A DNA stretch of 25,575 bases, from contig JAEOSH010000026.1 of assembly GCA_016840465.1 (NCBI GenBank), forward strand, positions 1 to 25,575, read 5' to 3'. The notes beneath the pieces were generated by a model. It made no database searches. It was not told the DNA's origin and was given only the letters and a program-made list of their open reading frames with translations. The translations under genes were made by a program, and so were the position numbers. Origin of the DNA: Candidatus Baldrarchaeum yapensis (GTDB lineage Archaea > Asgardarchaeota > Baldrarchaeia > Baldrarchaeales > Baldrarchaeaceae). Positions 577-14,776 of the stretch are shown in pieces (positions within the stretch are counted from its first letter, which is position 1; each line of letters starts with the position of its first letter).

Positions 577-604
577 TTTTATTTTACCTTAGGAGGCGGT
601 GCGG

Positions 605-1435
605 ATGGGGGACTTTAAATATTGTGTGTGGGAACGAAAATATGGTGATGCGATGGACGCGTTACGGAAGGAGTTCTTAGAATTATTGGAGAAGGATAAG
701 GAGTTCCGATATGCGGTTGCGGGGTATTTAGGAGTACTTGAGGTACTGAAGAGGTTAGATCAAATTGCGGATGCTCAGAAGAAGTTAATAGAGGGGCAGA
801 ACAAAATATGGGCTGAGATTTCAAAAATATGGGACGAAATTTCTAAGATATGGAGGGAGATTGAAAAGGTGTGGAAGGAAATTGAGAGTGTTCGTGGGGA
901 GATAAAGGCTCTAAGAGAGGAGGTTTCAAAGATATGGGAGGAGATTAGGAGTATATGGAGCGAGGTGAAAAAGTTACGTGAAGACTTCAATAAAATGTTA
1001 GCGGAGATCAGGAGCATAAATATGAGGCTAGAGAGGGTTGAGAGGACGCTGGAGAAGATCACATTAAGCATCGAGGACGATGCTCGTGTTATTATCGAGT
1101 GGTCTCTAAGAGGTAGGGGTATAGACATGAGAGTAAGAGAGCTTATTCTTCCGGATCTTCAGATGAACATCTATGGGGCGTCAGATGAGATATGTATCGT
1201 GGGTGAAGTAGAGACGAGAGCAGGGGTTTCAACCCTCAGGGAGTTGGAGAGGAAGTTTGAGATCCTGCGGTCGAAGTATCCCGAGTATTTGCGGAGGAGG
1301 GTAATCCTCGTAATATACACCCTTCAGCCGACGTACGAATTGATAGAAGAGGCGCGCAAGAAGGGCGTATGGCTCTTGAGGCCGACGGTAGAGTATGTAA
1401 GACCAGATCCTTTGTGGAAAGAGATTTCCTTATAA
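605..1435 (+). CDS. Long coiled-coil protein with a C-terminal degenerate PD-(D/E)XK-like domain (DUF3782-like)
   Basis: About 276 residues. The region encoded at 806-1060 is twelve consecutive heptads with no skip, of the pattern I-W-x-E-I-x-K, with hydrophobic residues at heptad positions 1 and 5. This predicts a rigid parallel coiled coil of about 84 residues. The C-terminal 110 residues resemble the nuclease-fold tail of archaeal DUF3782-type proteins. The expected ExK core reads GEVETR, so the usual catalytic lysine is absent and activity is doubtful. The function of the family is unknown to me. Start choice: ATG 605 has AGGAGG at 591-596, eight bases upstream. GTG 599 lies only two bases from that site. 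ATG 653 is a serious alternative, with CTTTAAATA at 613-621 and GGTGAT just before it. The gene faces away from the hexomutase gene. Confidence 0.8.
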   Translation: MGDFKYCVWERKYGDAMDALRKEFLELLEKDKEFRYAVAGYLGVLEVLKRLDQIADAQKKLIEGQNKIWAEISKIWDEISKIWREIEKVWKEIESVRGEIKALREEVSKIWEEIRSIWSEVKKLREDFNKMLAEIRSINMRLERVERTLEKITLSIEDDARVIIEWSLRGRGIDMRVRELILPDLQMNIYGASDEICIVGEVETRAGVSTLRELERKFEILRSKYPEYLRRRVILVIYTLQPTYELIEEARKKGVWLLRPTVEYVRPDPLWKEISL

Positions 1436-3857: not shown

Positions 3858-5105
3858 ATGGGCGATGACTATCTTTTCATTATGGCGACTCCCGAGGAGA
3901 TAAAGGAGGGAAAGACGACAGACATCTATTTTATCCGTACGGTCAAGATTTTAGAGGAGGACAACCTATCGAATGTTGTTGTGAATGCAGAATTCACTGC
4001 GAGCGGTTTTCCTGACAATTATCCATGGGCCTTCTTGGGAGGATTGAGAGACGTTGCCAAGCTTTTGGAGGGGCTCCCCATAGACGTTGATGCGATGCCA
4101 GAGGGTTCTGTCTTCTACAAGGAGGACTATTACGGTGTGAAGGAGCCCGTTATGGTCATTAGGGGGCCCTATGGCAAGTTTGCGATCTACGAGACTCCGG
4201 TGCTGGGATTTCTGTGTATGGGCTCAGGGGTTTTGACGAAGACCGCAAGATTGAGAAAGGTTGCCGGAGACGATGTCATATTGATTTCGTTCGGCGCTCG
4301 TAGGACTCATCCGGCGATTGCTCCATTTACTGCATTTTACGCGTACATTGGGGGATGTAATGCAGTTTCATGCGTTTTATCTGCTGAGAAGTTTTTGAAC
4401 ATGGCACCCGCGGGGACCATGCCTCATAGTCTCATAATAATATACAGTGTTGTTAAGGGCGACCAAGCAGAGGCGTGGAGAGCGTTTGACAGGGTGATGC
4501 CGCCTGAGGTTCCGCGTATAATGCTGTGTGACACTTATCTTGACGAAACCACCGAGAGCGTTAAAGCGGTTGAGGCTGTTGGTCCCGATAGGGTTTGGGG
4601 AGTGAGACTTGACACTCCAGGGTCTCGAAGAGGGAATTTTGCCGCAATAGTCAGGGAGGTCCTTTGGGAGTTGAGGGCGCGCGGGCTAAAGGGCAAAGTG
4701 TTCGTCTCGGGTGGTATTGACGAGGATGTCATACCGGAGTTGGTCAAGGCGGGGGTATCTGGGTTTGGTATAGGTTCCGCGATAGACAATGCCCGCATAA
4801 TAGACATTGCGATGGACATAACTGCAATATTTCAGAATGGGCAGTGGGTTCCGTGTGCGAAGCGTGGAAAGTTCTCGGGTGTTAAGAAGGTATATCGATG
4901 CCCCGACTGTCTGACCGATGCGATAACGTTGGAGAATGAGCCTAAACCCAAGTGTCCAAAGTGTGGCGGTGAGATGGAGAACATCTTACAGCCGCTGATT
5001 AGGAACGGAAAAATAGTCATGGAGTTTCCGGAGCCGAAGGAAGAAAGGGAATACGTACTGAAGCAACTGAAGAAATTGGACTTGAATAAACGTCCATGGG
5101 ATTAG
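3858..5105 (+). CDS. pncB: Nicotinate phosphoribosyltransferase with zinc-knuckle tail
   Basis: 415 residues of the archaeal class resembling the Thermoplasma enzyme. It converts nicotinate and PRPP, with ATP, to nicotinate mononucleotide. Signatures are FGARRTHPAI (145-154), GTMPHSL (186-192), LDTPGSRRGN (251-260), the TIM-barrel phosphate loop SGGID (284-288) and GFGIGSAID (302-310). The C-terminal segment carries four cysteines as two CxxC pairs (C348, C351, C366, C369), a zinc knuckle known in the archaeal subgroup. GGTGAG at 3847-3852 lies five bases before the ATG. It is divergent from pncA, giving a two-step NAD salvage unit. Its TAG stop overlaps the TAA stop of the convergent lhr gene (5102-5105). 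Confidence 0.94.
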   Translation: MGDDYLFIMATPEEIKEGKTTDIYFIRTVKILEEDNLSNVVVNAEFTASGFPDNYPWAFLGGLRDVAKLLEGLPIDVDAMPEGSVFYKEDYYGVKEPVMVIRGPYGKFAIYETPVLGFLCMGSGVLTKTARLRKVAGDDVILISFGARRTHPAIAPFTAFYAYIGGCNAVSCVLSAEKFLNMAPAGTMPHSLIIIYSVVKGDQAEAWRAFDRVMPPEVPRIMLCDTYLDETTESVKAVEAVGPDRVWGVRLDTPGSRRGNFAAIVREVLWELRARGLKGKVFVSGGIDEDVIPELVKAGVSGFGIGSAIDNARIIDIAMDITAIFQNGQWVPCAKRGKFSGVKKVYRCPDCLTDAITLENEPKPKCPKCGGEMENILQPLIRNGKIVMEFPEPKEEREYVLKQLKKLDLNKRPWD

Positions 5106-8100
5106 GTGCTGGTGTTATACGATTTCAGTAATTCGATGTCTGAACGCAGAACCCACTGCTTGTCCGGTTTGTATTTCAGATAGTATCCCGAAACAACCTT
5201 TCCTTCCATTTCTAATTGATTTAATAACTCCCTAATCTCATCCTCGTTGAGGCCCGACCACTCGCATATCTCATCTACCGTCGAGGGGCCATTGAACCAT
5301 AGGAACTTCTCTATGAGTTTCTTTTGGGCCAACCTCCTCGTTAAACTTTGGTAACGCTCCAATATTTCTGCTGGAAGGACGCGTTCCGGCAGATCCCATA
5401 CTATCATTGTCTTGCCTTTTTCGTCCTTTATTGTGTCCACGCGAATTATTAAGAAGTTGCTTTCCAGCCTCTGTAAGGAAACTCTCACATCGGAAATCTT
5501 CGCTTTCAGTTTCTTTTTCAATTGTATGATTGTTTGTGGGCCCTCAGCTTTTATTGTATCAAGGATCCTTCTGTCAAGGTCGTTGAGTGGAATGTTCTGT
5601 TCATACACCCTTCTGAAGATCGGGTACTCTTCGGTTACGATCCACAATGGTTGCAGGCCGCGCAGACATCTTATCCATAGTACTTTCCTTTCTCTCCACA
5701 ACTCTCTTGTTGCATTTTGTATTTCTTCCATGTTCATCTTCATTCGCTTTTTAAGGGAAGGTTCCTTATCCATTAATGCGTTTAGGGGACCGCAGTCTTT
5801 CAGTATTCTCACAATATCATCTTTTGTTGTTCCTAGAGAATCTTCTGTCAGACGTGACCTTCTCGCGTAGAATTTCTCAATGACCTCAGCCGGTATTGCT
5901 ATAAAAGTTAGGTTGCTGAGTTCTTCGTACATGTCCCTAGAGATCACCTGAGGAGTGGGTTTGTAGTCGACGAATTTTCCACTCAGGATCTCTCCGCCCA
6001 TTTCTAGGGATGAAAGTATTTTGCTTATCTCTTCGGCGGGTATTCGCGTGTATCTCTCTATTTCTTCCAGTGTTGATGGACCATTATTCCTCAGGAAGGT
6101 CATTATTGCTTCTCGTTTTGCCAGAGCAACGTCGTAGTTTTCTGCGGATTCTAAAATTGCGGGAGGAACTATCGACTCCCTCGCGCACCACAGGTTCTTC
6201 GTCGTGTACTTTCCATTTTTCTTTCTTTTTCTTCTATGTACCAGATATGCCTCTTCCAGAGACTTTAGTGCCTTCTTTACGGTTTTCACGTCCAGATTTA
6301 AGTCCCCGGCAATTTGTTCTTCCGTTGCCTTTCCTACAGTTCTCAGGTATCTTAGAACATTATTTTCGATGCGCGAAAGCGAGGAAATTTTCCTAAAGGC
6401 GGCGTAATATACGGGGTATCTTGCCATGGGGATATAACATGGTTTCTTGTACTTGAGGCAACGAACTTGGATAACTTTTCCTTCTTCCTCCAACATACCC
6501 AGCCATTGACGGACAATTTCGCGTGCCTTCTTATCGTTCTCCGCATGCACTCTTCTTACAATTTCGTCTTCTGGGAGCGCGCCGACATCAAATAATATTG
6601 TTAAGAGGTCATCGGGGGATCTTGCCATAGTTTCCTCAGTGAGGTGCTGTCGTTGCATGATCACACGTTCGACGATATCTCTTGGGAAAATCACTGGTGA
6701 TACCGGAATTCTCTCCATCTTCTCGGATATTCTCTGGAGAACTTTTCTATGCAATTCGCGCAGAAGTGTCTGCCTATCCTCCATTATCACTACATCGCTT
6801 ATTCCGACTAGGAGTATTCCGTGAGCAAAGGGCGATGGCACGTCGTGGGAGTGCAAGAAGTCAAACCTTATGTTTCCGCGTTCGATTTCCCTTAACACAT
6901 ACTCAGCGTTTTGTACGTCGAAAACGTCCTCTAGTATTTCCCTATATGTTTCTTTGACTACCGGGAAGTCCTCCCATTCTGAAATCAGGTCAAGAATTCT
7001 GGAAGCACGGAGTTGCTGTTTCGACAATGAAATTTCTACGCCCTTATACCGCTTAAGGATCATGAAACTCCTAGCGGCGACATGCTGGAATCTTCGCCTG
7101 AACAATTCTGTGTTCTTTACTGCTCTACGTAAAACCTCCCTCAATTCTCTCCAGTTCAGCAACTCCGGTATTTCGTGTATGTCCATCCTCTTATCGCTCG
7201 GAAGGACGAGGAGAAAGCCGTCGTCATTAACTGCGGTTCCAACATTTGCCCTAATCAAGTTTGAGATTTTATACGCGTATGCGCGGGAAAGAGCATCATT
7301 GACCCTTCTTCCAAATGGCGCATGGAAGATTATGTGTTGTTTTCCGCTATCATCGAAGAACTCCTCTATCAATATGACTCTATGTGTCGCGATTTTTCCT
7401 GAAAAGCGGAGTTGTTCGAGGAAGTAATTGATAATGCTGTTTGCAGCGTATTCGTCAAGATAATACTCCCTTACTAACCACTCCCTCACGCTGTCTTCGC
7501 CCTCGGTAAGTAGCCGTCGCACGACTTCCTCCCTAAATTTTCCGACTTCTATTGAAAGATCGAAGCTTCGCGGAAGCATTTCACCTACCCATGTTGGTAC
7601 CGTCGGTCTCTTTCCGAAAGCGCTCCTCACGAAGACTGTCATACCGCTGGTCGTGAGGTATTCGTATGTTTTTCCTCCTAGGACAAAGACATCTCCGGGA
7701 TTCAACCTTTCAAGGAATTTCTCGCTCAGCATTCCAATTTTCATGCCAGTATCTTTGTCGATGACCTTGAATTCCGCCTCTTCCGGTATAGTTCCAACGT
7801 TAAGGAAGTATATCATCCGAGAGGATTTCTTTCTCCCAAATTTCCCCTCGGAAAGATCAAGCCATATCTTTCTGTAGACTCCCGCGTACTCGAGGGGGGC
7901 ATATTCGCCACCTAGAAATCTCAGTACGGACAGATAGTCGTCCCAGCTGAGATCGTGGTAGCAGTACGAGCACCTTATCAGTTTATATGCGTCGTGGATG
8001 TCCCACTTGGCGTTAATCGACATTCCAACTATGTGCTGCGCCAGGACATCTAAGCAGTTTTTAGGTATTTGCACGCGATCTATCTTCCCATCATATGCTG

Positions 8101-9328
8101 CTTTTATCAAAACGGTACATTCTATTAGGTCATCTCTGTCGAAAACTATGAATCTTCCCTTGGACACTTCATGAAGATAATGTCCGGCTCTGCCGACTCG
8201 TTGCAGCCCCTTTGCAACGCTCTTTGGGCTTCCTATTTGTATTACCAGATCAATGTATCCGATGTCGATTCCGAGTTCAAGTGAGGTAGAGGTGACCACC
8301 GCCTTTAGTTCTCCGCGTTTTAGTTTGTCCTCAACGGTCAATCTTGTGTCTCGCGATAGGCTTCCATGGTGAGTTGCAATGTAGTCTATTAATTCGTCTC
8401 CTATGAACTGCTTGAGGTGGAAGGTAACGCTTTCGGCGCCGCTTCTTGTATTCGTAAATATCAGTGTGGTTCTATGCTTCTTCACGAGGTCTCTTATCAA
8501 TTCGTACATTCGGGCGTTAACATACGCGTAATCGGATCTTATTAGGTCCTTGACCGGGCATACGACCCTTATATCCAGTTTCTTTGTCTCATACACGTCG
8601 ACAATGGCGACATCTCTAAGTTCACCATCTTCCCTGTAACCCACAAGCCACTTTGCGATTTCCTCGAGTGGAGCCTGTGTTGCACTTAAACCTATTCTGA
8701 TGAACTCCCTGCCTATCATCCATCTTAGTCTTTCCAAGGAGAGCGAAAGATGTACCCCCCGTTTGTTATCGCATAGCTCATGTACCTCGTCCACTATAAC
8801 GTACCTGACAGTTGAAAGCTTTTGGCAGAACTTGGGAGCGCATAGCACTATTGCTAGGCTTTCTGGGGTTGTTATAAGGATGTGCGGTGCTTTTCTAAGC
8901 ATCTTTGCTTTTTCGCTCGATGAGGTGTCACCTGTACGGACGAACACTCTAATTTCCGGCAGTTCTATTCCCATCTCTTCGGCGACTTTGCGAATTCCCT
9001 CGAGCGGGAAAAGTAAGTTCTTTCTTATGTCGTTTGCTAGGGCTCTTAAGGGTGATATATACACGACGTAAACGCCATCGCCGAGTTCTCCCCTCTCTCC
9101 TAACTCGAAAAGCCAGTTTATTACAAATAGGAACGCGGCCAGAGTCTTCCCACTTCCGGTTGGGCTGAAAACGAGAACATTCTTTCCCTCTTTAATCAGG
9201 GGTATCGCCCGCCGTTGAGGAGGAGTGAAGGTTTCGAAGGTGCGGCGAAACCACTCTGCCACGTAAGGCCTAAGCATTGCAAGTATTTCCTCGTCGCTCC
9301 AGTCCCTGTTGACATATATTATTGCCAC
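5102..9328 (-). CDS. lhr: Lhr-type ATP-dependent DNA helicase with duplicated C-terminal winged-helix module
   Basis: 1408 residues, well above the roughly 850-950 of most archaeal Lhr proteins. Helicase lobe 1 has Walker A SPTGSGKT (55-62), DEVH (180-183) and LSATQAP (214-220). Lobe 2 has FTNTRSG (291-297), STSLELGIDIG (347-357) and QRVGRAGH (376-383). The Lhr-core winged-helix and beta domains run to about residue 860. Residues 890-1404 are two copies of one module in exact 264-residue register: LTEE at 896 against LTED at 1160, RCL at 956 and 1220, ILE at 1058 and 1322, NGPST at 1082 and 1346, YKP at 1122 and 1386. Lhr translocates 3' to 5' on DNA and acts in repair. The start is GTG 9328, nine bases after GGTGA. 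It is divergent from an Lhr-associated phosphoesterase. Confidence 0.95.
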   Translation of the reverse strand: MAIIYVNRDWSDEEILAMLRPYVAEWFRRTFETFTPPQRRAIPLIKEGKNVLVFSPTGSGKTLAAFLFVINWLFELGERGELGDGVYVVYISPLRALANDIRKNLLFPLEGIRKVAEEMGIELPEIRVFVRTGDTSSSEKAKMLRKAPHILITTPESLAIVLCAPKFCQKLSTVRYVIVDEVHELCDNKRGVHLSLSLERLRWMIGREFIRIGLSATQAPLEEIAKWLVGYREDGELRDVAIVDVYETKKLDIRVVCPVKDLIRSDYAYVNARMYELIRDLVKKHRTTLIFTNTRSGAESVTFHLKQFIGDELIDYIATHHGSLSRDTRLTVEDKLKRGELKAVVTSTSLELGIDIGYIDLVIQIGSPKSVAKGLQRVGRAGHYLHEVSKGRFIVFDRDDLIECTVLIKAAYDGKIDRVQIPKNCLDVLAQHIVGMSINAKWDIHDAYKLIRCSYCYHDLSWDDYLSVLRFLGGEYAPLEYAGVYRKIWLDLSEGKFGRKKSSRMIYFLNVGTIPEEAEFKVIDKDTGMKIGMLSEKFLERLNPGDVFVLGGKTYEYLTTSGMTVFVRSAFGKRPTVPTWVGEMLPRSFDLSIEVGKFREEVVRRLLTEGEDSVREWLVREYYLDEYAANSIINYFLEQLRFSGKIATHRVILIEEFFDDSGKQHIIFHAPFGRRVNDALSRAYAYKISNLIRANVGTAVNDDGFLLVLPSDKRMDIHEIPELLNWRELREVLRRAVKNTELFRRRFQHVAARSFMILKRYKGVEISLSKQQLRASRILDLISEWEDFPVVKETYREILEDVFDVQNAEYVLREIERGNIRFDFLHSHDVPSPFAHGILLVGISDVVIMEDRQTLLRELHRKVLQRISEKMERIPVSPVIFPRDIVERVIMQRQHLTEETMARSPDDLLTILFDVGALPEDEIVRRVHAENDKKAREIVRQWLGMLEEEGKVIQVRCLKYKKPCYIPMARYPVYYAAFRKISSLSRIENNVLRYLRTVGKATEEQIAGDLNLDVKTVKKALKSLEEAYLVHRRKRKKNGKYTTKNLWCARESIVPPAILESAENYDVALAKREAIMTFLRNNGPSTLEEIERYTRIPAEEISKILSSLEMGGEILSGKFVDYKPTPQVISRDMYEELSNLTFIAIPAEVIEKFYARRSRLTEDSLGTTKDDIVRILKDCGPLNALMDKEPSLKKRMKMNMEEIQNATRELWRERKVLWIRCLRGLQPLWIVTEEYPIFRRVYEQNIPLNDLDRRILDTIKAEGPQTIIQLKKKLKAKISDVRVSLQRLESNFLIIRVDTIKDEKGKTMIVWDLPERVLPAEILERYQSLTRRLAQKKLIEKFLWFNGPSTVDEICEWSGLNEDEIRELLNQLEMEGKVVSGYYLKYKPDKQWVLRSDIELLKSYNTST

Positions 9329-9403: not shown

Positions 9404-9487
9404 CAGGGAAGGATGGAATTAATATTGGGAACTTATCAGTTTAACTATTGGGACTAAAAGTTAGAATTTTCGCGTGGAGGACAATTG

Positions 9488-10291
9488 ATGGCAGAAAGCA
9501 CGCGCATCACGCTCCATAAAGGTGATGTGGAGATTGCATCAGGAATTCCCGCAATATTTGTGAAATCGATAGGCGCGGTCGTCATAGCGGATCTTCATAT
9601 TGGTTACGAGTGGGCGCTTGGTCAGCAGGACATTCATCTTCCGTTATCACAGTTCCCCGAGATGCTTGACGATATCAAGAGGCTTATCGAAACATACGAT
9701 CCGGATATACTTATAATAGATGGCGATCTCAAGCACGAGTTCAGTAAGGCGACTGCGCAGGAGTGGAGGGAGGTTCTAGATCTGCTCCATTTCCTCGACA
9801 AAAACATTCGAAAAACGTACGTTGTACGGGGCAACCATGACAATTTTATAAGGGGTTTCTTCCGGCGATACGAGCACGTGGATTTCGTGGAACCCTACTT
9901 ATTACTCGAGGATTACATGTTCTTGCATGGTGATAAGGAAATTCTCGACATCAATTCGCGAAAGGACGAGTATGAGGTTCTAGTAATAGGGCATGAGCAT
10001 CCCTCCATGATAATAGTGGACGAGGTCGGTGCTAGGGTCAGACTGAAAGTTTTGATGACGGGTCCTATGAAAATAGGACGAGAATTAATAGTGTTGCCAG
10101 CGTTTTCTCCGATAATGAGCGGAGTCGAGGTTGTGACAATAAGAGTTGGTGCGGGTGGTTTTGCCTTACCACAGAGTCAATTTCTATCCCCAATTTTGAG
10201 AAATTATACAGAGATAGGCGAGATGAGGGTTATTGGAATCGATAAGGAGGGAGGCGTGCTTCCCTTCCCGAAAATAGCCGATCTTTTATGA
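9488..10291 (+). CDS. Lhr/ligase-associated metallophosphoesterase (MJ0037/PdeM-like)
   Basis: 267 residues with all calcineurin-type motifs: ADLHIGYE (D35, H37), DGDLKHEF (D78, D80), RGNHDNF (GNHD 115-118), FLHGD (146-149 region) and IGHEHPS (GHEHP 168-172). These coordinate two metal ions for phosphodiester or phosphomonoester hydrolysis. In bacteria, relatives sit beside Lhr-core, ATP-dependent ligase and exonuclease genes and are thought to act in DNA end repair. Here the gene is divergent from lhr, repeating that association without ligase or exonuclease nearby. GGAGG at 9476-9480 lies seven bases before ATG 9488. The overlapping TTG at 9485 is only four bases away and less likely. The natural substrate is not known. 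Confidence 0.9.
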   Translation: MAESTRITLHKGDVEIASGIPAIFVKSIGAVVIADLHIGYEWALGQQDIHLPLSQFPEMLDDIKRLIETYDPDILIIDGDLKHEFSKATAQEWREVLDLLHFLDKNIRKTYVVRGNHDNFIRGFFRRYEHVDFVEPYLLLEDYMFLHGDKEILDINSRKDEYEVLVIGHEHPSMIIVDEVGARVRLKVLMTGPMKIGRELIVLPAFSPIMSGVEVVTIRVGAGGFALPQSQFLSPILRNYTEIGEMRVIGIDKEGGVLPFPKIADLL

Positions 10292-10868: not shown

Positions 10869-12839
10869 TTAACCTAGTATATATAGGATTTGTGAGGCTA
10901 GATTAATTCCAAATCTATAAACGTTTTCCAAGCTTTTAGCATTTCTAGCAAGAGGGTACATACTCCCATGATACCTAGACCTGAACACCTGTAAGCATCT
11001 GCGTGCGAACTCATCGACCCTCTTCAATACTCTGAGGATCATTGATCGCGTGGGGACGCGCAAGAGGATTTTATCTCCTTCTTTTCTAAGTTCCGAACAC
11101 CTATGACGAACAACATCACATAGGGATACGAAGCTTATGCAGGGGAGTGCTCCTAGCAAAAGTAGCACTGCTGAGAGAAATTTGTATGCCTCAGCGATGA
11201 ATACATCGATAGAAAATCTAATATCGCCGTTCGTTAGCAAATCAAGTGCATATTTGAAGCTCTCGATCGATTTTCTCATCACATTGGCGCATATGTCGAG
11301 AACTTTTTTACGAAATGAATTTTCATCCCTAGAGGCCTCGAAAAGTTGTGCGAAGTATGGAACAGCACTTGACAGTATCGCTCTTATGATTTCAAGAATT
11401 AATTCTTCGGGCACACATAGTGGTGTTTCATCTCTTATTGCGACAACTCTGGGTACTAGTGTCATGAATAGAGACCTTAAGCCCTCGTATATTTGGGATG
11501 CTAGAGATTCGACCATAGACTTGCTCGCTTTCAATGGAATTTTTGATAAAAAGTTGCGTGTGACGAGCATTTCTATGGTCGTTCGACTGAAAGGATACAT
11601 GTGGCCGTTCTTGGATTTAATGACTAGGAAGTCTTGTGTCGATACGTAATATTGATACCTTGTTGAGAACTCTCCCGTTCCGTCAATGCTATCCAGCGCC
11701 CTGCAGACGCTCCAAACTATCTCATCAGATCCTACAATTGCGGATCCTCTCAGAGAGTTCACAATACTGTCAATGACCGATAGGGCTATTGAGACGTCTA
11801 TATTTGCACGTATCAGCGATTCGAGAATTTTTTCGTACGAAAATTTTGATAGTTTTCCATCACGTAACACTACATATTTCTTTTCCGAACTCAATGTGTC
11901 GAACAGTTCTTTTATTGGATTTTTTAGCCTCCCTACGTAATTTTCTTCCCAAAAACTCAGTATTCTTTCAAGTTCTCCTATTAATGCTTTACCTTTTGGT
12001 AGTATTTCCACCCACCTGTTGGATCTCTTGACAATCTCTGCGTTCTCGAGTTTTTCTAGCATACTATTAACCAAGGAAGGATCATGATACTGCTCAATAT
12101 CGAGTATAGGGAAGACTTTCTCGTATAGAAGGCCAAGATCACCTTCATACATGTGTAGCAGGAAGAGTAGAAGATAAATAGTTGCGGTTTCATTCCCGAA
12201 ACTTTCTAGTTTGTTTGCAACCTCCTTTAGATCCTCATATAAGTCCAGAAGCCATGAACCGATGGTGGATAATCTTATAATGTCTCGTTCTACCTTTTCG
12301 ACGACCCCGAGACTTTCCAAGCGTTGCATTATTGATGCATTAACAGAAATATCCGTAGATGTGGAAAGATCCGGAACTTGAGAGTAAGGACGCTTCGAAA
12401 GTTCTGTTAGAAGTTTATGAACGTAGGGGTCACATTCCTTTATAAGAATCATTATATCAATTATGAGCCTTAGGCTCTGTAACTTCATCAACAAGTCTAC
12501 CTTTTCATCGGAACTAAGGTCCTCGTCCTCGACCTGACTTACCGATATCCTATTCATGATCATTCCCTGTTTTTTAAGGAAATTTCCCAAATTCTCCTCC
12601 AAGATTTTCATCGCCGACTCGGCGGATTTTTTATCTATGGCCTTAATTACGAAAATTGCCTCCATTTCGTCCTCTATTATCTTCCAGCCCCTGATACGTG
12701 CCCCTACCTCTCTTACTTGCGCTTCCACTTCTTTCATCAGTTCTTGGAGGTCGTAAATTATTTTCCTGTCAAAATTGTTCAATTGATAAATGGCGGTGAG
12801 CATGTATCTTTTCGAGCGATTGCCGCTATATGAATACAT
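10869..12839 (-). CDS. Uncharacterised winged-helix/double ATP-cone protein, possible nucleotide-sensing regulator
   Basis: 656 residues, not recognised as a named family. Residues 321-398 match the ATP-cone domain: YVVLRDG, then KFSYEKILESLIRA, then a GSDEIVWSV segment, ending in RYQYY. Residues 403-490 repeat the pattern in worn form: FLVIKSKNGHMYPFSRTTIE, a helical stretch, then VPEELILEIIRAIL. Upstream, residues 135-200 and 219-292 each look like winged helices (helix, recognition helix, basic beta wing). Residues 1-105 form an alpha/beta region of unknown fold. Residues 500-656 are all helical. ATP-cones bind ATP or dATP and set oligomeric state in ribonucleotide reductase and in the NrdR repressor. 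A nucleotide-responsive DNA-binding protein is my inference. GGAGG lies nine bases before the ATG, and the gene overlaps the SerK-like gene by 14 bases, so they are cotranscribed. Confidence 0.8.
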   Translation of the reverse strand: MYSYSGNRSKRYMLTAIYQLNNFDRKIIYDLQELMKEVEAQVREVGARIRGWKIIEDEMEAIFVIKAIDKKSAESAMKILEENLGNFLKKQGMIMNRISVSQVEDEDLSSDEKVDLLMKLQSLRLIIDIMILIKECDPYVHKLLTELSKRPYSQVPDLSTSTDISVNASIMQRLESLGVVEKVERDIIRLSTIGSWLLDLYEDLKEVANKLESFGNETATIYLLLFLLHMYEGDLGLLYEKVFPILDIEQYHDPSLVNSMLEKLENAEIVKRSNRWVEILPKGKALIGELERILSFWEENYVGRLKNPIKELFDTLSSEKKYVVLRDGKLSKFSYEKILESLIRANIDVSIALSVIDSIVNSLRGSAIVGSDEIVWSVCRALDSIDGTGEFSTRYQYYVSTQDFLVIKSKNGHMYPFSRTTIEMLVTRNFLSKIPLKASKSMVESLASQIYEGLRSLFMTLVPRVVAIRDETPLCVPEELILEIIRAILSSAVPYFAQLFEASRDENSFRKKVLDICANVMRKSIESFKYALDLLTNGDIRFSIDVFIAEAYKFLSAVLLLLGALPCISFVSLCDVVRHRCSELRKEGDKILLRVPTRSMILRVLKRVDEFARRCLQVFRSRYHGSMYPLARNAKSLENVYRFGINLASQILYILG

Positions 12840-13701
12840 ACAGATGATCCTCCGCGTAAAATCTATCGATATTTATTCCACCTCGTATTTTCATTAGATT
12901 TCGCTGCCTTAAAATTATATTTAAGATTTTATTTCGCTCCTTCAGATCAAGATCCTCGGATGTTCGGGAGAGGAGTTTTAGGGGGACGTTTACGAAAAGG
13001 GGGCGTGCTGGTATTATGTGGCGTGTCGTCTTTGGAGGGAAGACTTCTCCTCTCAGGGCGACTTCCACGACATCCTTCTTGGCGATGGGGGGTGTTGCCA
13101 TGATTGCGTTGGCACCTGATTCTCGTAACGCAAGTGCATCCGCCTGGTAGGTTATCTTTGCGCGAAATGTTGTCGTTAATATTCTTTCTAATCTATACAC
13201 TTCGTCATAAAGGGCCTTTATGCTCAATGTTTCTTCAGGTAATATCAGAATTGCGCTTTTCCTCTGTTTTAACATTATTGCCGCAATTGCATTCTTAGAA
13301 TTCAATTCTTCCATTGCGACGTCGATATTGCATTTTTCTGTGCAATATTCCTGCGAGATCTTACTTACCATGTCATCTATTGGACCTTCCAGCCAGATCT
13401 CTCGATACCAATTACGGACTTTAATGTGAGGGTCTTCATATCTCACGAGGCAGGCGACAATGTACTCATAACCTAGCTCTCTTAGGGCGTAGTATCTATG
13501 CATTCCGTCTAATATAACGCGGGTTCGTTCATCAACTATTATTGGATTCATGAGGATAGAGGATCTTTTTATTTCCTTTACCAGTTTTTCGAGGAGGTGG
13601 GGTACTACCATCTCATGAGGATAGAGATCAGTCAACTTTAAAATGGATATTTTGAGCGTGAATATAGTGTGATCCGGGAGAAGGTGATTAATTACGAACA
13701 A
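12826..13701 (-). CDS. SerK-like protein (ParB/Srx-fold, free L-serine kinase family)
   Basis: 291 residues. The N-terminal half is a ParB/Srx fold: LYPHE with E30, NPIIVD (52-57) and ILDGMHRYYAL (63-73). The C-terminal half ends in RGEVFPPKTTRHIIP, closely like the same region of the Thermococcus ADP-dependent serine kinase SerK, which makes O-phosphoserine for cysteine synthesis. The conserved glutamate and the DGxHR loop are kept. SerK, as I recall it, has DGHHR where this protein has DGMHR, so one histidine may be missing and activity is not assured. A tail of about 40 residues (after LKLLSRT) extends beyond the usual SerK end. The start TTG 13701 is supported by GAGGTG seven to eight bases upstream. 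The gene is cotranscribed with the ATP-cone protein. Confidence is high for the family, moderate for the reaction. Confidence 0.75.
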   Translation of the reverse strand: MFVINHLLPDHTIFTLKISILKLTDLYPHEMVVPHLLEKLVKEIKRSSILMNPIIVDERTRVILDGMHRYYALRELGYEYIVACLVRYEDPHIKVRNWYREIWLEGPIDDMVSKISQEYCTEKCNIDVAMEELNSKNAIAAIMLKQRKSAILILPEETLSIKALYDEVYRLERILTTTFRAKITYQADALALRESGANAIMATPPIAKKDVVEVALRGEVFPPKTTRHIIPARPLFVNVPLKLLSRTSEDLDLKERNKILNIILRQRNLMKIRGGINIDRFYAEDHLYVFI

Positions 13702-13780
13702 GTTTGTAGCACCTCATCTGTTCTAAGTAAAGATTTGAACGTATTTATCAAAAAGTTGACGAACAATGGCGGTGCCTGAT

Positions 13781-14776
13781 ATGCGAAAATTGCATTTAGA
13801 GTACAATGGCGGAATACTTTTAGAATACCAAGAAAAACGCATTCTGATAGATCCTCACGGGAAAACGGTGAAAAACCCCGATATTGTGATAGTTTCTCAC
13901 GCCCATAGTGATCATAGTAGCGGAATCTGGAGTCCTAGGCTCAGAAGTGCATATAAGATAATGAGTCCGGCAACGAGGAAAATACTTGAGAGGCGGAGAG
14001 GGAGAAAACTTACAAACGTCATTGAATTGTCCGAGGGAGAATATTTGGACATTGGAAGCATCAGAATTCATACAGAAACTGCCGGACACTGTGCGGGCAG
14101 TTTGCAATTTCTCATATCGTTTAAAAATTTGGATGTTGTTTACAGTGGTGATTTTTGCCTTGAAAGGAGAGTAATTTTGAATGCGTGTCGGCCGTTAAAG
14201 GGTGATGTGCTGATCATGGAGGCTACGTATGGCAATCCGAGATACATATTTCCTCCTCGCACCACGTTATATACGCGTTTTAAGAGTTGGCTGATGGAAA
14301 TGTTCGAAAAATATCAGGGAGTGATCGTAAAATGTCGAAGCTTAGGCACCGCACAGGAAGTTACAAGGCTCATTTCGGAGCTTAAAGGAGCCCAGATATT
14401 TGCGCATGCTTCAATAGCTGAGATGAATAGGGTACACGAAGAGTACTATAACAACTTAGGGGAGTATTACGAGTTTTGCGGTAACTTAGATTATATGAGT
14501 GGGATTCTGCTGGTGCCCCTAGGGGCTAAGATGAAGATTAGAAATCAAAGTCTTGTGAAGTCCTTTGTAAGTGGGCGTTTTGCAATATCTGGTTACAGAT
14601 ATTCCTTCCCAATAAGTTCACACGCGGATTTTGTCCATTTGATAAAGTACGCGCGGGAAAGCCAAGCAACTGATGTTTTTACGGTATACGGGTATGCTGA
14701 AGACCTTATTACTTATCTGCACGACGAACTTGGAGTTTCGGGACACCCCATTAAAAGAAGAAAATTGATGAAGTAA
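13781..14776 (+). CDS. Beta-CASP metallo-beta-lactamase-fold nuclease
   Basis: 331 residues. The metallo-beta-lactamase half has HAHSDHSSG (motif 2), GHCAGS (motif 3) and YSGDF (motif 4). The beta-CASP half has MEATYGNP (motif A), PISSHADF (motif B) and VFTVYGYAEDL, where motif C should lie. RNA-acting members usually have His at motif C and DNA-acting ones Val; here the position appears to be Tyr. The protein is shorter than archaeal aCPSF or RNase J and has no KH domains, so it belongs with the small exonuclease-like group of COG1236. Its substrate is unknown. ATG 13781 has GGTG six bases upstream, and a TATA-like TATTTAT at 13742-13748 predicts a start near 13770. ATG 13766 is the alternative. 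It is divergent from the SerK-like gene. Confidence 0.85.
   Translation: MRKLHLEYNGGILLEYQEKRILIDPHGKTVKNPDIVIVSHAHSDHSSGIWSPRLRSAYKIMSPATRKILERRRGRKLTNVIELSEGEYLDIGSIRIHTETAGHCAGSLQFLISFKNLDVVYSGDFCLERRVILNACRPLKGDVLIMEATYGNPRYIFPPRTTLYTRFKSWLMEMFEKYQGVIVKCRSLGTAQEVTRLISELKGAQIFAHASIAEMNRVHEEYYNNLGEYYEFCGNLDYMSGILLVPLGAKMKIRNQSLVKSFVSGRFAISGYRYSFPISSHADFVHLIKYARESQATDVFTVYGYAEDLITYLHDELGVSGHPIKRRKLMK

What the first reader, a model, noticed from the sequence alone, without database searches (positions are those of the whole stretch)
10869..12839. Winged-helix protein carrying two ATP-cone domains: a candidate new archaeal nucleotide-sensing regulator
Seen: residues 321-398 carry the ATP-cone pattern (RDG, then KFSYEKI, then a late DEI helix, then RYQYY). 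Residues 403-490 repeat it in weaker form (VIKSKNG, PFS, PEELILEII). Two winged-helix-like regions precede them. Known: ATP-cones sense ATP/dATP in ribonucleotide reductase and NrdR. Inference: this could couple adenine-nucleotide state to DNA binding by an architecture unlike NrdR, which uses a zinc ribbon. No reductase catalytic domain is present and the C-terminal 150 residues are an unknown helical domain.
Basis: partly seen in the sequence, partly recalled or inferred. Interest (0 to 1): 0.78.

Follow-up and report, generated by a model that had tools for sequence, protein, structure and literature searches.

The report
Energy-sensing partner of archaeal serine kinase
An Asgard archaeon carries a large, undescribed protein containing an ATP-sensing fold usually seen in DNA-precursor enzymes, but its gene is locked to a SerK-like (serine kinase) gene, and in some other archaea the two are fused into one protein, so it probably tunes serine and cysteine metabolism to cell energy rather than controlling DNA-precursor genes.

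Summary
Its ATP-cone is real: Pfam above cut-off, profile comparison E 1e-13, and a structure model matching NrdA and NrdR. A second cone-like unit is supported by structure but not by sequence. One MarR-like winged helix is supported, not two. The N-terminus is ferredoxin-like and the C-terminal 150 residues are HEPN-like.

The gene starts inside a SerK-like (ADP-dependent serine kinase) gene, behind a GGAGG motif. Homologs occur in Asgard archaea, Thermoproteota, Theionarchaea and a Thermoplasmatales MAG. Every full-length homolog with visible upstream DNA follows, or is fused to, SerK; two Theionarchaea carry one 927-932 aa polypeptide. In a tree of 82 SerK proteins, all 20 with this partner fall in one 22-member clade (SH-aLRT 98).

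Best explanation: a dedicated regulatory partner of a serine kinase that reads adenine-nucleotide state. Shown: domains, partnership, fusion, co-inheritance. Inferred: nucleotide sensing, kinase control. Caution: ATP-contact residues are only partly kept (L,R,S,K against K,R,E,K in NrdR), and SerK scores below its curated cut-off.

The parts
10869..12839 (-). Target gene, 656 aa: ferredoxin-like / helical linker / MarR-like winged helix / ATP-cone / cone-like repeat / HEPN-like bundle
   Evidence: ORF; domains
12534..12803 (-). Ferredoxin-like beta-alpha-beta-beta-alpha-beta domain (model residues 12-101)
   Evidence: AF2 of residues 12-317, ten-residue pLDDT means 63-90 over this stretch; aIF2-alpha C-terminal domain Z 10.4, rmsd 2.9 over 88 residues; Foldseek 2op5 E 3e-4
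11928..12191 (-). MarR-like winged helix (model residues ~216-303)
   Evidence: AF2, ten-residue pLDDT means about 40-77; NadR 5aip Z 9.4, rmsd 2.2 over 80 residues, and other MarR proteins
11631..11879 (-). ATP-cone 1 (residues 320-402)
   Evidence: PF03477 E 9e-6; hhalign 98.1%, E 1e-13; Foldseek NrdA/NrdR
11331..11630 (-). Second ATP-cone-like unit (residues 403-502)
   Evidence: AF2 order E-E-H-H-E-H-H, ten-residue pLDDT means mostly 72-92, one block at 47; sequence alone not significant
10872..11324 (-). C-terminal HEPN-like helical bundle (residues 505-655), no conserved RX4-6H motif
   Evidence: VIA-align: 2hsb HEPN Z 12.2, HepT toxins Z about 11.5; motif scan
12826..13701 (-). SerK-like (ParB-fold) protein, 291 aa, upstream partner; overlaps the target by 14 nt
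   Evidence: NF053625 93 bits, E 1e-26, cut-off 380 not reached; PDB SerK-type structures 1vk1/5x0b E 1e-19 and 4e-18; motifs HE, DGMHR, KTTRH kept
12849..12853 (-). GGAGG Shine-Dalgarno-like motif inside serK, 9 nt before the target ATG
   Evidence: sequence read

Best explanation
The protein is a dedicated regulatory partner of a SerK-family serine kinase. It is probably translated coupled to serK and, most likely, binds SerK through its N-terminal ferredoxin-like half. Its ATP-cone (with the second cone-like unit and the HEPN-like bundle as oligomerisation parts) reads adenine-nucleotide state. That state changes the oligomer and turns serine phosphorylation (Ser + ADP to O-phosphoserine + AMP) up or down. 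In this genome O-phosphoserine could feed the SepCysS route to cysteine. Shown: domain make-up, gene overlap, fusion, co-inheritance. Inferred: physical binding in the unfused species, nucleotide binding, direction of control.
For: 1) Adjacency. In Asgard genomes the gene overlaps a SerK-like gene in every contig that reaches upstream (window, G025, G187, G100). In 398 Thermoproteota genomes searched with the partner profile alone, 13 long members were found; all 10 whose upstream DNA is visible follow SerK directly, including 3 that had not been reached through SerK. 2) A separate scan with SerK gave 80 named loci; 14 hold the ATP-cone partner directly downstream or fused and 3 more an N-terminal-half version. 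3) Fusion: Theionarchaea L192 and L194 encode SerK (residues ~47-342) and the whole partner in one ORF of 927 and 932 aa. 4) SerK tree: 20 of 20 partner-bearing SerKs lie in one clade of 22 (SH-aLRT 98; 5 label changes against 18.5 in shuffles). 5) In Njordarchaeota-type genomes the N-terminal half alone follows SerK (L100, L099, L103) and in one of them the cone-HEPN half is a separate, apparently membrane-anchored protein (L013), so the SerK-facing part is likely the N-terminal half. 6) Serine context of such SerK genes: SerA, class V aminotransferase, phosphoglycerate mutase, SerB-ACT. 7) Experimental SerK uses ADP and makes AMP (PMC5120207), so an adenylate sensor is a sensible partner. 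8) This genome has SepCysS above cut-off.
Against: ATP-contact residues of NrdR (K50, R51, E56, K62; PMC9110341) read L,R,S,K here, and the K50 position is K or R in only 5 of 17 members; nucleotide binding may be lost in Asgards. [quoted passage not shown] The MarR-like winged helix suggests DNA binding. 62 of 82 SerKs in the tree do without the partner. The serine context is not seen around the window's own pair.
Confidence: 0.5

Rival explanations
1. Transcription factor: the MarR-like winged helix binds DNA at the serK operon and serine/cysteine genes, and the ATP-cone sets its oligomer state, as NrdR does but for other genes.
For: MarR-like fold, Z about 9; NrdR precedent of cone-driven oligomers; weak hits to HTH families in several members.
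Against: Winged helix absent in L187 (404 aa); fusion to an enzyme-type protein in Theionarchaea is unusual for a transcription factor; winged-helix pLDDT means only about 40-77.
Confidence: 0.25
2. Scaffold only: the cones are degenerate and bind no nucleotide; the protein holds SerK in an assembly, perhaps with SerA or tRNA-Cys enzymes.
For: Loss of cone contact residues in Asgards; HEPN-like bundle without catalytic motif; N-terminal-half-only partners in Njordarchaeota-type genomes.
Against: Hairpin glycine kept in all 17 members, phenylalanine and K62 in most, and Thermoproteota members such as L119 keep R, R, E, K; cone profile kept across phyla.
Confidence: 0.18
3. NrdR-like regulator of ribonucleotide reductase genes.
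For: ATP-cone; reductase-like ORFs with ATP-cones exist in the genome.
Against: No zinc ribbon; no reductase neighbour in the window or in the homolog loci read; constant partner is SerK.
Confidence: 0.03

Closest known systems
NrdR (zinc ribbon + ATP-cone repressor)
   Same: ATP-cone joined to a putative DNA-binding domain; nucleotide-driven oligomerisation is a plausible mechanism
   Different: No zinc ribbon, 656 aa instead of 140-220, partner gene is SerK and not reductase, cone contact residues partly lost, extra ferredoxin-like and HEPN-like domains
Class I RNR NrdA with tandem ATP-cones (PDB 5im3)
   Same: Best Foldseek hit for the model; two cones in a row (my knowledge of 5im3)
   Different: No reductase domain; second cone recognisable by fold only
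SerK, ADP-dependent free serine kinase (TK0378; PDB 5x0b)
   Same: The partner gene: similar sequence and active-site-type motifs kept
   Different: Longer C-terminus, 93 bits against a cut-off of 380; the characterised SerK is not described with an ATP-cone partner in the passages read
Archaeal ParB-fold + CBS fusions (PMC12704722)
   Same: A ParB-fold protein joined to an adenosyl-ligand sensor
   Different: CBS instead of ATP-cone, mainly in Methanobacteriota and haloarchaea; the main text of that survey does not mention ATP-cone
HEPN domain proteins (AF_0298, HepT)
   Same: Helical-bundle fold of the C-terminus
   Different: RX4-6H motif not conserved; no nucleotidyltransferase partner seen

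Membership tests
ATP-cone (PF03477) | Score above curated cut-off | tested here: met
   26.6 against 25.8 bits; profile-profile E 1e-13
ATP-cone (PF03477) | Three-stranded cap plus four-helix bundle | tested here: met
   AF2 secondary structure 321-398, Foldseek to NrdA and NrdR; definition from PMC6572854
ATP-cone (PF03477) | Nucleotide-contact residues K50, R51, E56, K62 (NrdR numbering) | tested here: inconclusive
   window L,R,S,K; Thermoproteota L119 R,R,E,K
ATP-cone (PF03477) | Binds ATP/dATP | not testable with these tools
   needs purified protein
NrdR | N-terminal zinc ribbon with two CxxC motifs | tested here: not met
   no CxxC in the sequence; N-terminus is ferredoxin-like
NrdR | 140-220 residues, linked to RNR genes | tested here: not met
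   656 aa; neighbours are SerK and unrelated genes
SerK (partner gene) | NF053625 equivalog cut-off of 380 bits | tested here: not met
   93 bits; no genome of the phylum reaches it
SerK (partner gene) | Conserved HE, DGxHR and K[ST]TRH motifs | tested here: met
SerK (partner gene) | ADP-dependent phosphorylation of free serine | not testable with these tools
   needs enzyme assay
HEPN | HEPN helical-bundle fold | tested here: inconclusive
   four best VIA rows are HEPN proteins, Z 11.3-12.2, but below about 13 helical bundles may match by common arrangement only
HEPN | RX4-6H catalytic motif | tested here: not met
   absent in the window protein and not conserved
MarR-type winged helix | Winged-helix fold | tested here: inconclusive
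   Z about 9 to NadR, TcaR, MexR and SlyA, pLDDT means about 40-77
Ferredoxin-like fold | beta-alpha-beta-beta-alpha-beta order | tested here: met
   a fold, not a family claim

The most novel reading that the evidence does not exclude
A SerK-ATP-cone enzyme/sensor pair, fused in Theionarchaea: the ATP-cone, known mainly for controlling deoxynucleotide supply, directly gates an ADP-using amino-acid kinase and so ties serine, O-phosphoserine and tRNA-dependent cysteine flux to adenylate charge in Asgard and other archaea.
Probability: 0.38. Interest if true: 0.85.

Novelty: new variant of a known kind. Interest (0 to 1): 0.7.

Why it matters
ATP-cones are studied almost only in ribonucleotide reductase and NrdR. 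A conserved, sometimes fused pairing with a serine kinase across several archaeal phyla would show that the sensor was also recruited to amino-acid metabolism. It gives a concrete, testable function for an unannotated protein family and for a large unassigned branch of SerK/ParB-fold proteins in archaea. Because the fused Theionarchaeal protein is a single polypeptide, the central claim (adenylate control of serine phosphorylation) can be tested with one purified enzyme.

Tried and rejected
phmmer of the target against PDB: no hit. Pattern scan of genome contigs with the single protein: none; with alignment A2: too divergent. RNR-regulator idea: no reductase neighbour in the window or in the homolog loci read. 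Two winged helices: the first (residues ~136-189) has pLDDT under 50 in both models, so not claimed. ACT domain (serine sensing): I suspected it from the beta-alpha-beta-beta-alpha-beta order; the fold searches returned general ferredoxin-like folds, mainly aIF2-alpha and designed proteins, so I do not claim ACT. Active HEPN ribonuclease: motif not conserved. Second cone by sequence: E 0.01-0.02, not significant. DUF2704, YqgQ-like and Ribosomal_S19e Pfam hits: below cut-off, treated as chance. Cysteine synthase in the window genome: only PALP proteins in open frames of 412-505 aa were found, subfamily not resolved. Sigma-70-type promoter scan of the region: no more than shuffles and not suited to archaea. 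Searches of the open literature for ATP-cone with HEPN or with serine kinase: none; that library lacks most subscription papers, and Aravind et al. 2000 was not read.

Full report
What is there. The ORF lies on the minus strand, 10869-12839, 656 aa with ATG; the plus-strand frame is closed by many stops. It overlaps the end of the upstream ORF 12826-13701(-) by 14 nt, and its ATG follows GGAGG by 9 nt, an arrangement that fits translational coupling. Residues below are numbered from the Tyr after the Met.

Domains. Pfam finds only one domain above its cut-off, ATP-cone, 26.6 bits for residues 320-362. A profile of cone 1 from 17 homologs matches eight Asgard ATP-cones (from reductase-like and short ATP-cone proteins) at 98.1% and E 1e-13; the other regions of the same protein score E 0.2-0.4. 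AlphaFold2 on seven homologs is confident for most of 316-655. It shows strand-strand-helix-helix-strand-helix-helix twice (321-398 and 404-501), the layout of an ATP-cone (definition in PMC6572854), and then a helical bundle 505-655. Foldseek puts P. aeruginosa NrdA first (E 1.7e-4), with NrdR and other reductases below it. VIA-align puts HEPN proteins first for 505-655 (Z 12.2 for 2hsb), but helical bundles can reach such Z by common arrangement, so I call it HEPN-like. A second model, of residues 12-317 with eight homologs, gives a clear beta-alpha-beta-beta-alpha-beta domain at 12-101 and a MarR-like winged helix at about 216-303 at lower confidence.

Nucleotide contacts. In S. coelicolor NrdR, K50, R51, E56 and K62 touch the nucleotides (PMC9110341). 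The window protein has L, R, S, K. Members from Thermoproteota come closer (L119: R, R, E, K). Across 17 members the K50 position is K or R in five. Nucleotide binding is therefore plausible but not shown, and could be lost in some members.

Who it travels with. The upstream ORF is a ParB-fold SerK-like protein: NF053625 93 bits, below the equivalog cut-off of 380; solved SerK-type structures match at E 1e-19 and 4e-18; HE, DGxHR and KxTRH motifs are conserved. The characterised SerK phosphorylates free serine with ADP and feeds cysteine synthesis (PMC5120207).

Homologs and neighbours. In 227 genomes of the window's phylum seven members of the family, the window's own included, were found. 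The phylum is read as Asgard because contigs of the same set bear names such as Asgard group archaeon, Njordarchaeota, Hermodarchaeota and Borrarchaeum. In every Asgard full-length case whose contig reaches upstream (window, G025, G187, G100) the SerK-like gene overlaps it. In G187 the SerK gene itself is cut by the contig end. A scan with SerK instead of the partner gave 80 loci. The partner profile then found the ATP-cone protein directly behind SerK in Thermoprotei and Thermofilaceae MAGs, a Thermoplasmatales MAG (in two frames) and Asgards. In two Theionarchaea SerK and partner form one ORF of 927 and 932 aa. The reverse test, searching 398 Thermoproteota genomes with the partner profile alone, found 13 long members; all 10 with visible upstream sequence follow SerK, three of them new (L217, L218, L220).

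Modularity. In Njordarchaeota-type genomes only the N-terminal half follows SerK (L100, L099, L103). In one of these genomes the cone-HEPN half occurs as a separate, apparently membrane-anchored protein beside a gene that I read as adenosine-specific-kinase-like (L013). L187 lacks the winged helix. The constant element beside SerK is the N-terminal domain; the cone half is the usual but separable sensor.

Co-inheritance. In a tree of 82 SerK proteins, 20 of 20 with a partner lie in one clade of 22 (SH-aLRT 98); the other side has 60 without (5 changes of label, shuffled mean 18.5). The two exceptions are L151 and L174; in L174 SerK overlaps a SerB-like gene with ACT domain.

Metabolic context. 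SerA lies near SerK in G025, G187 and L132 and near the partner in G051; class V aminotransferases in G187, G057 and G032; cofactor-independent phosphoglycerate mutase overlaps SerK in Hadarchaea. The window genome has SepCysS at 522 bits (cut-off 365) and a SerB-like protein below cut-off. O-phosphoserine could therefore be used for tRNA-dependent cysteine formation. This last step is inference. The window's own pair stands among DNA-repair-type genes, not serine genes.

Reading. The evidence supports a two-gene enzyme and sensor unit more than an NrdR analogue. Shown: fold content, gene overlap, fusion, co-inheritance. Inferred: that the cone binds adenine nucleotides, that it acts on SerK, and the direction of the effect. 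The main rival is a transcription factor for serine/cysteine genes through the MarR-like domain. A survey of ParB-fold proteins published in December 2025 reports CBS-domain fusions in archaea and a SerK-like protein that bound CTP, and its main text does not mention ATP-cones (PMC12704722). I found no paper joining ATP-cone with HEPN or with serine kinase in the open library, which does not hold most subscription journals.

Noticed in passing
window 5102-9328(-), 9485-10291(+), 13766-14776(+): An Lhr-type helicase, a PdeM/SbcD-related phosphoesterase (TIGR00024 above cut-off) and a relative of the ligase-associated exonuclease (TIGR04122, below cut-off) flank the SerK pair: like the bacterial ligase-associated DNA damage response set, but in an Asgard.
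   Followed up: no
L112:1684-5364 (G010): 1227-aa open frame holding an ATP-cone, HEPN-like helices, zinc ribbon and membrane segments, running without a stop into what looks like glutamyl-tRNA synthetase.
   Followed up: partly
L013:287-1429 and 1703-2218 (G057): Apparently membrane-anchored ATP-cone + helical protein next to a gene resembling adenosine-specific kinase; same module without SerK.
   Followed up: partly
L209:742-2364, L210:691-2340 (Theionarchaea): A second, shorter cone-HEPN-like protein of 541-550 aa in the genomes that carry the SerK fusion, beside a molybdopterin-oxidoreductase-like gene.
   Followed up: no
L224, L226, L227, L229 and others; L007: Stand-alone ATP-cone proteins of about 95-105 aa and about 180-200 aa in Thermoproteota and Asgards, function unknown to me.
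   Followed up: no
L216:895-1719: ATP-cone joined to what looks like a restriction-endonuclease-type domain.
   Followed up: no
L153, L154, L157, L162 (Hadarchaea): SerK overlaps the next gene by 7-90 nt in open frames; in L153 and L154 that gene is a cofactor-independent phosphoglycerate mutase, and L157 and L162 look alike in length and position.
   Followed up: partly
L095, L096, L098 (Hermodarchaeota): SerK followed by a conserved 333-337 aa protein of unknown function.
   Followed up: no
window 599-1435(+): Coiled-coil protein with repeated IW-containing heptads and a C-terminal part that looks nuclease-like.
   Followed up: no
G000 contig C27:6221-7360: SepCysS at 522 bits in the window's genome, pointing to tRNA-dependent cysteine formation in this Asgard lineage.
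   Followed up: partly
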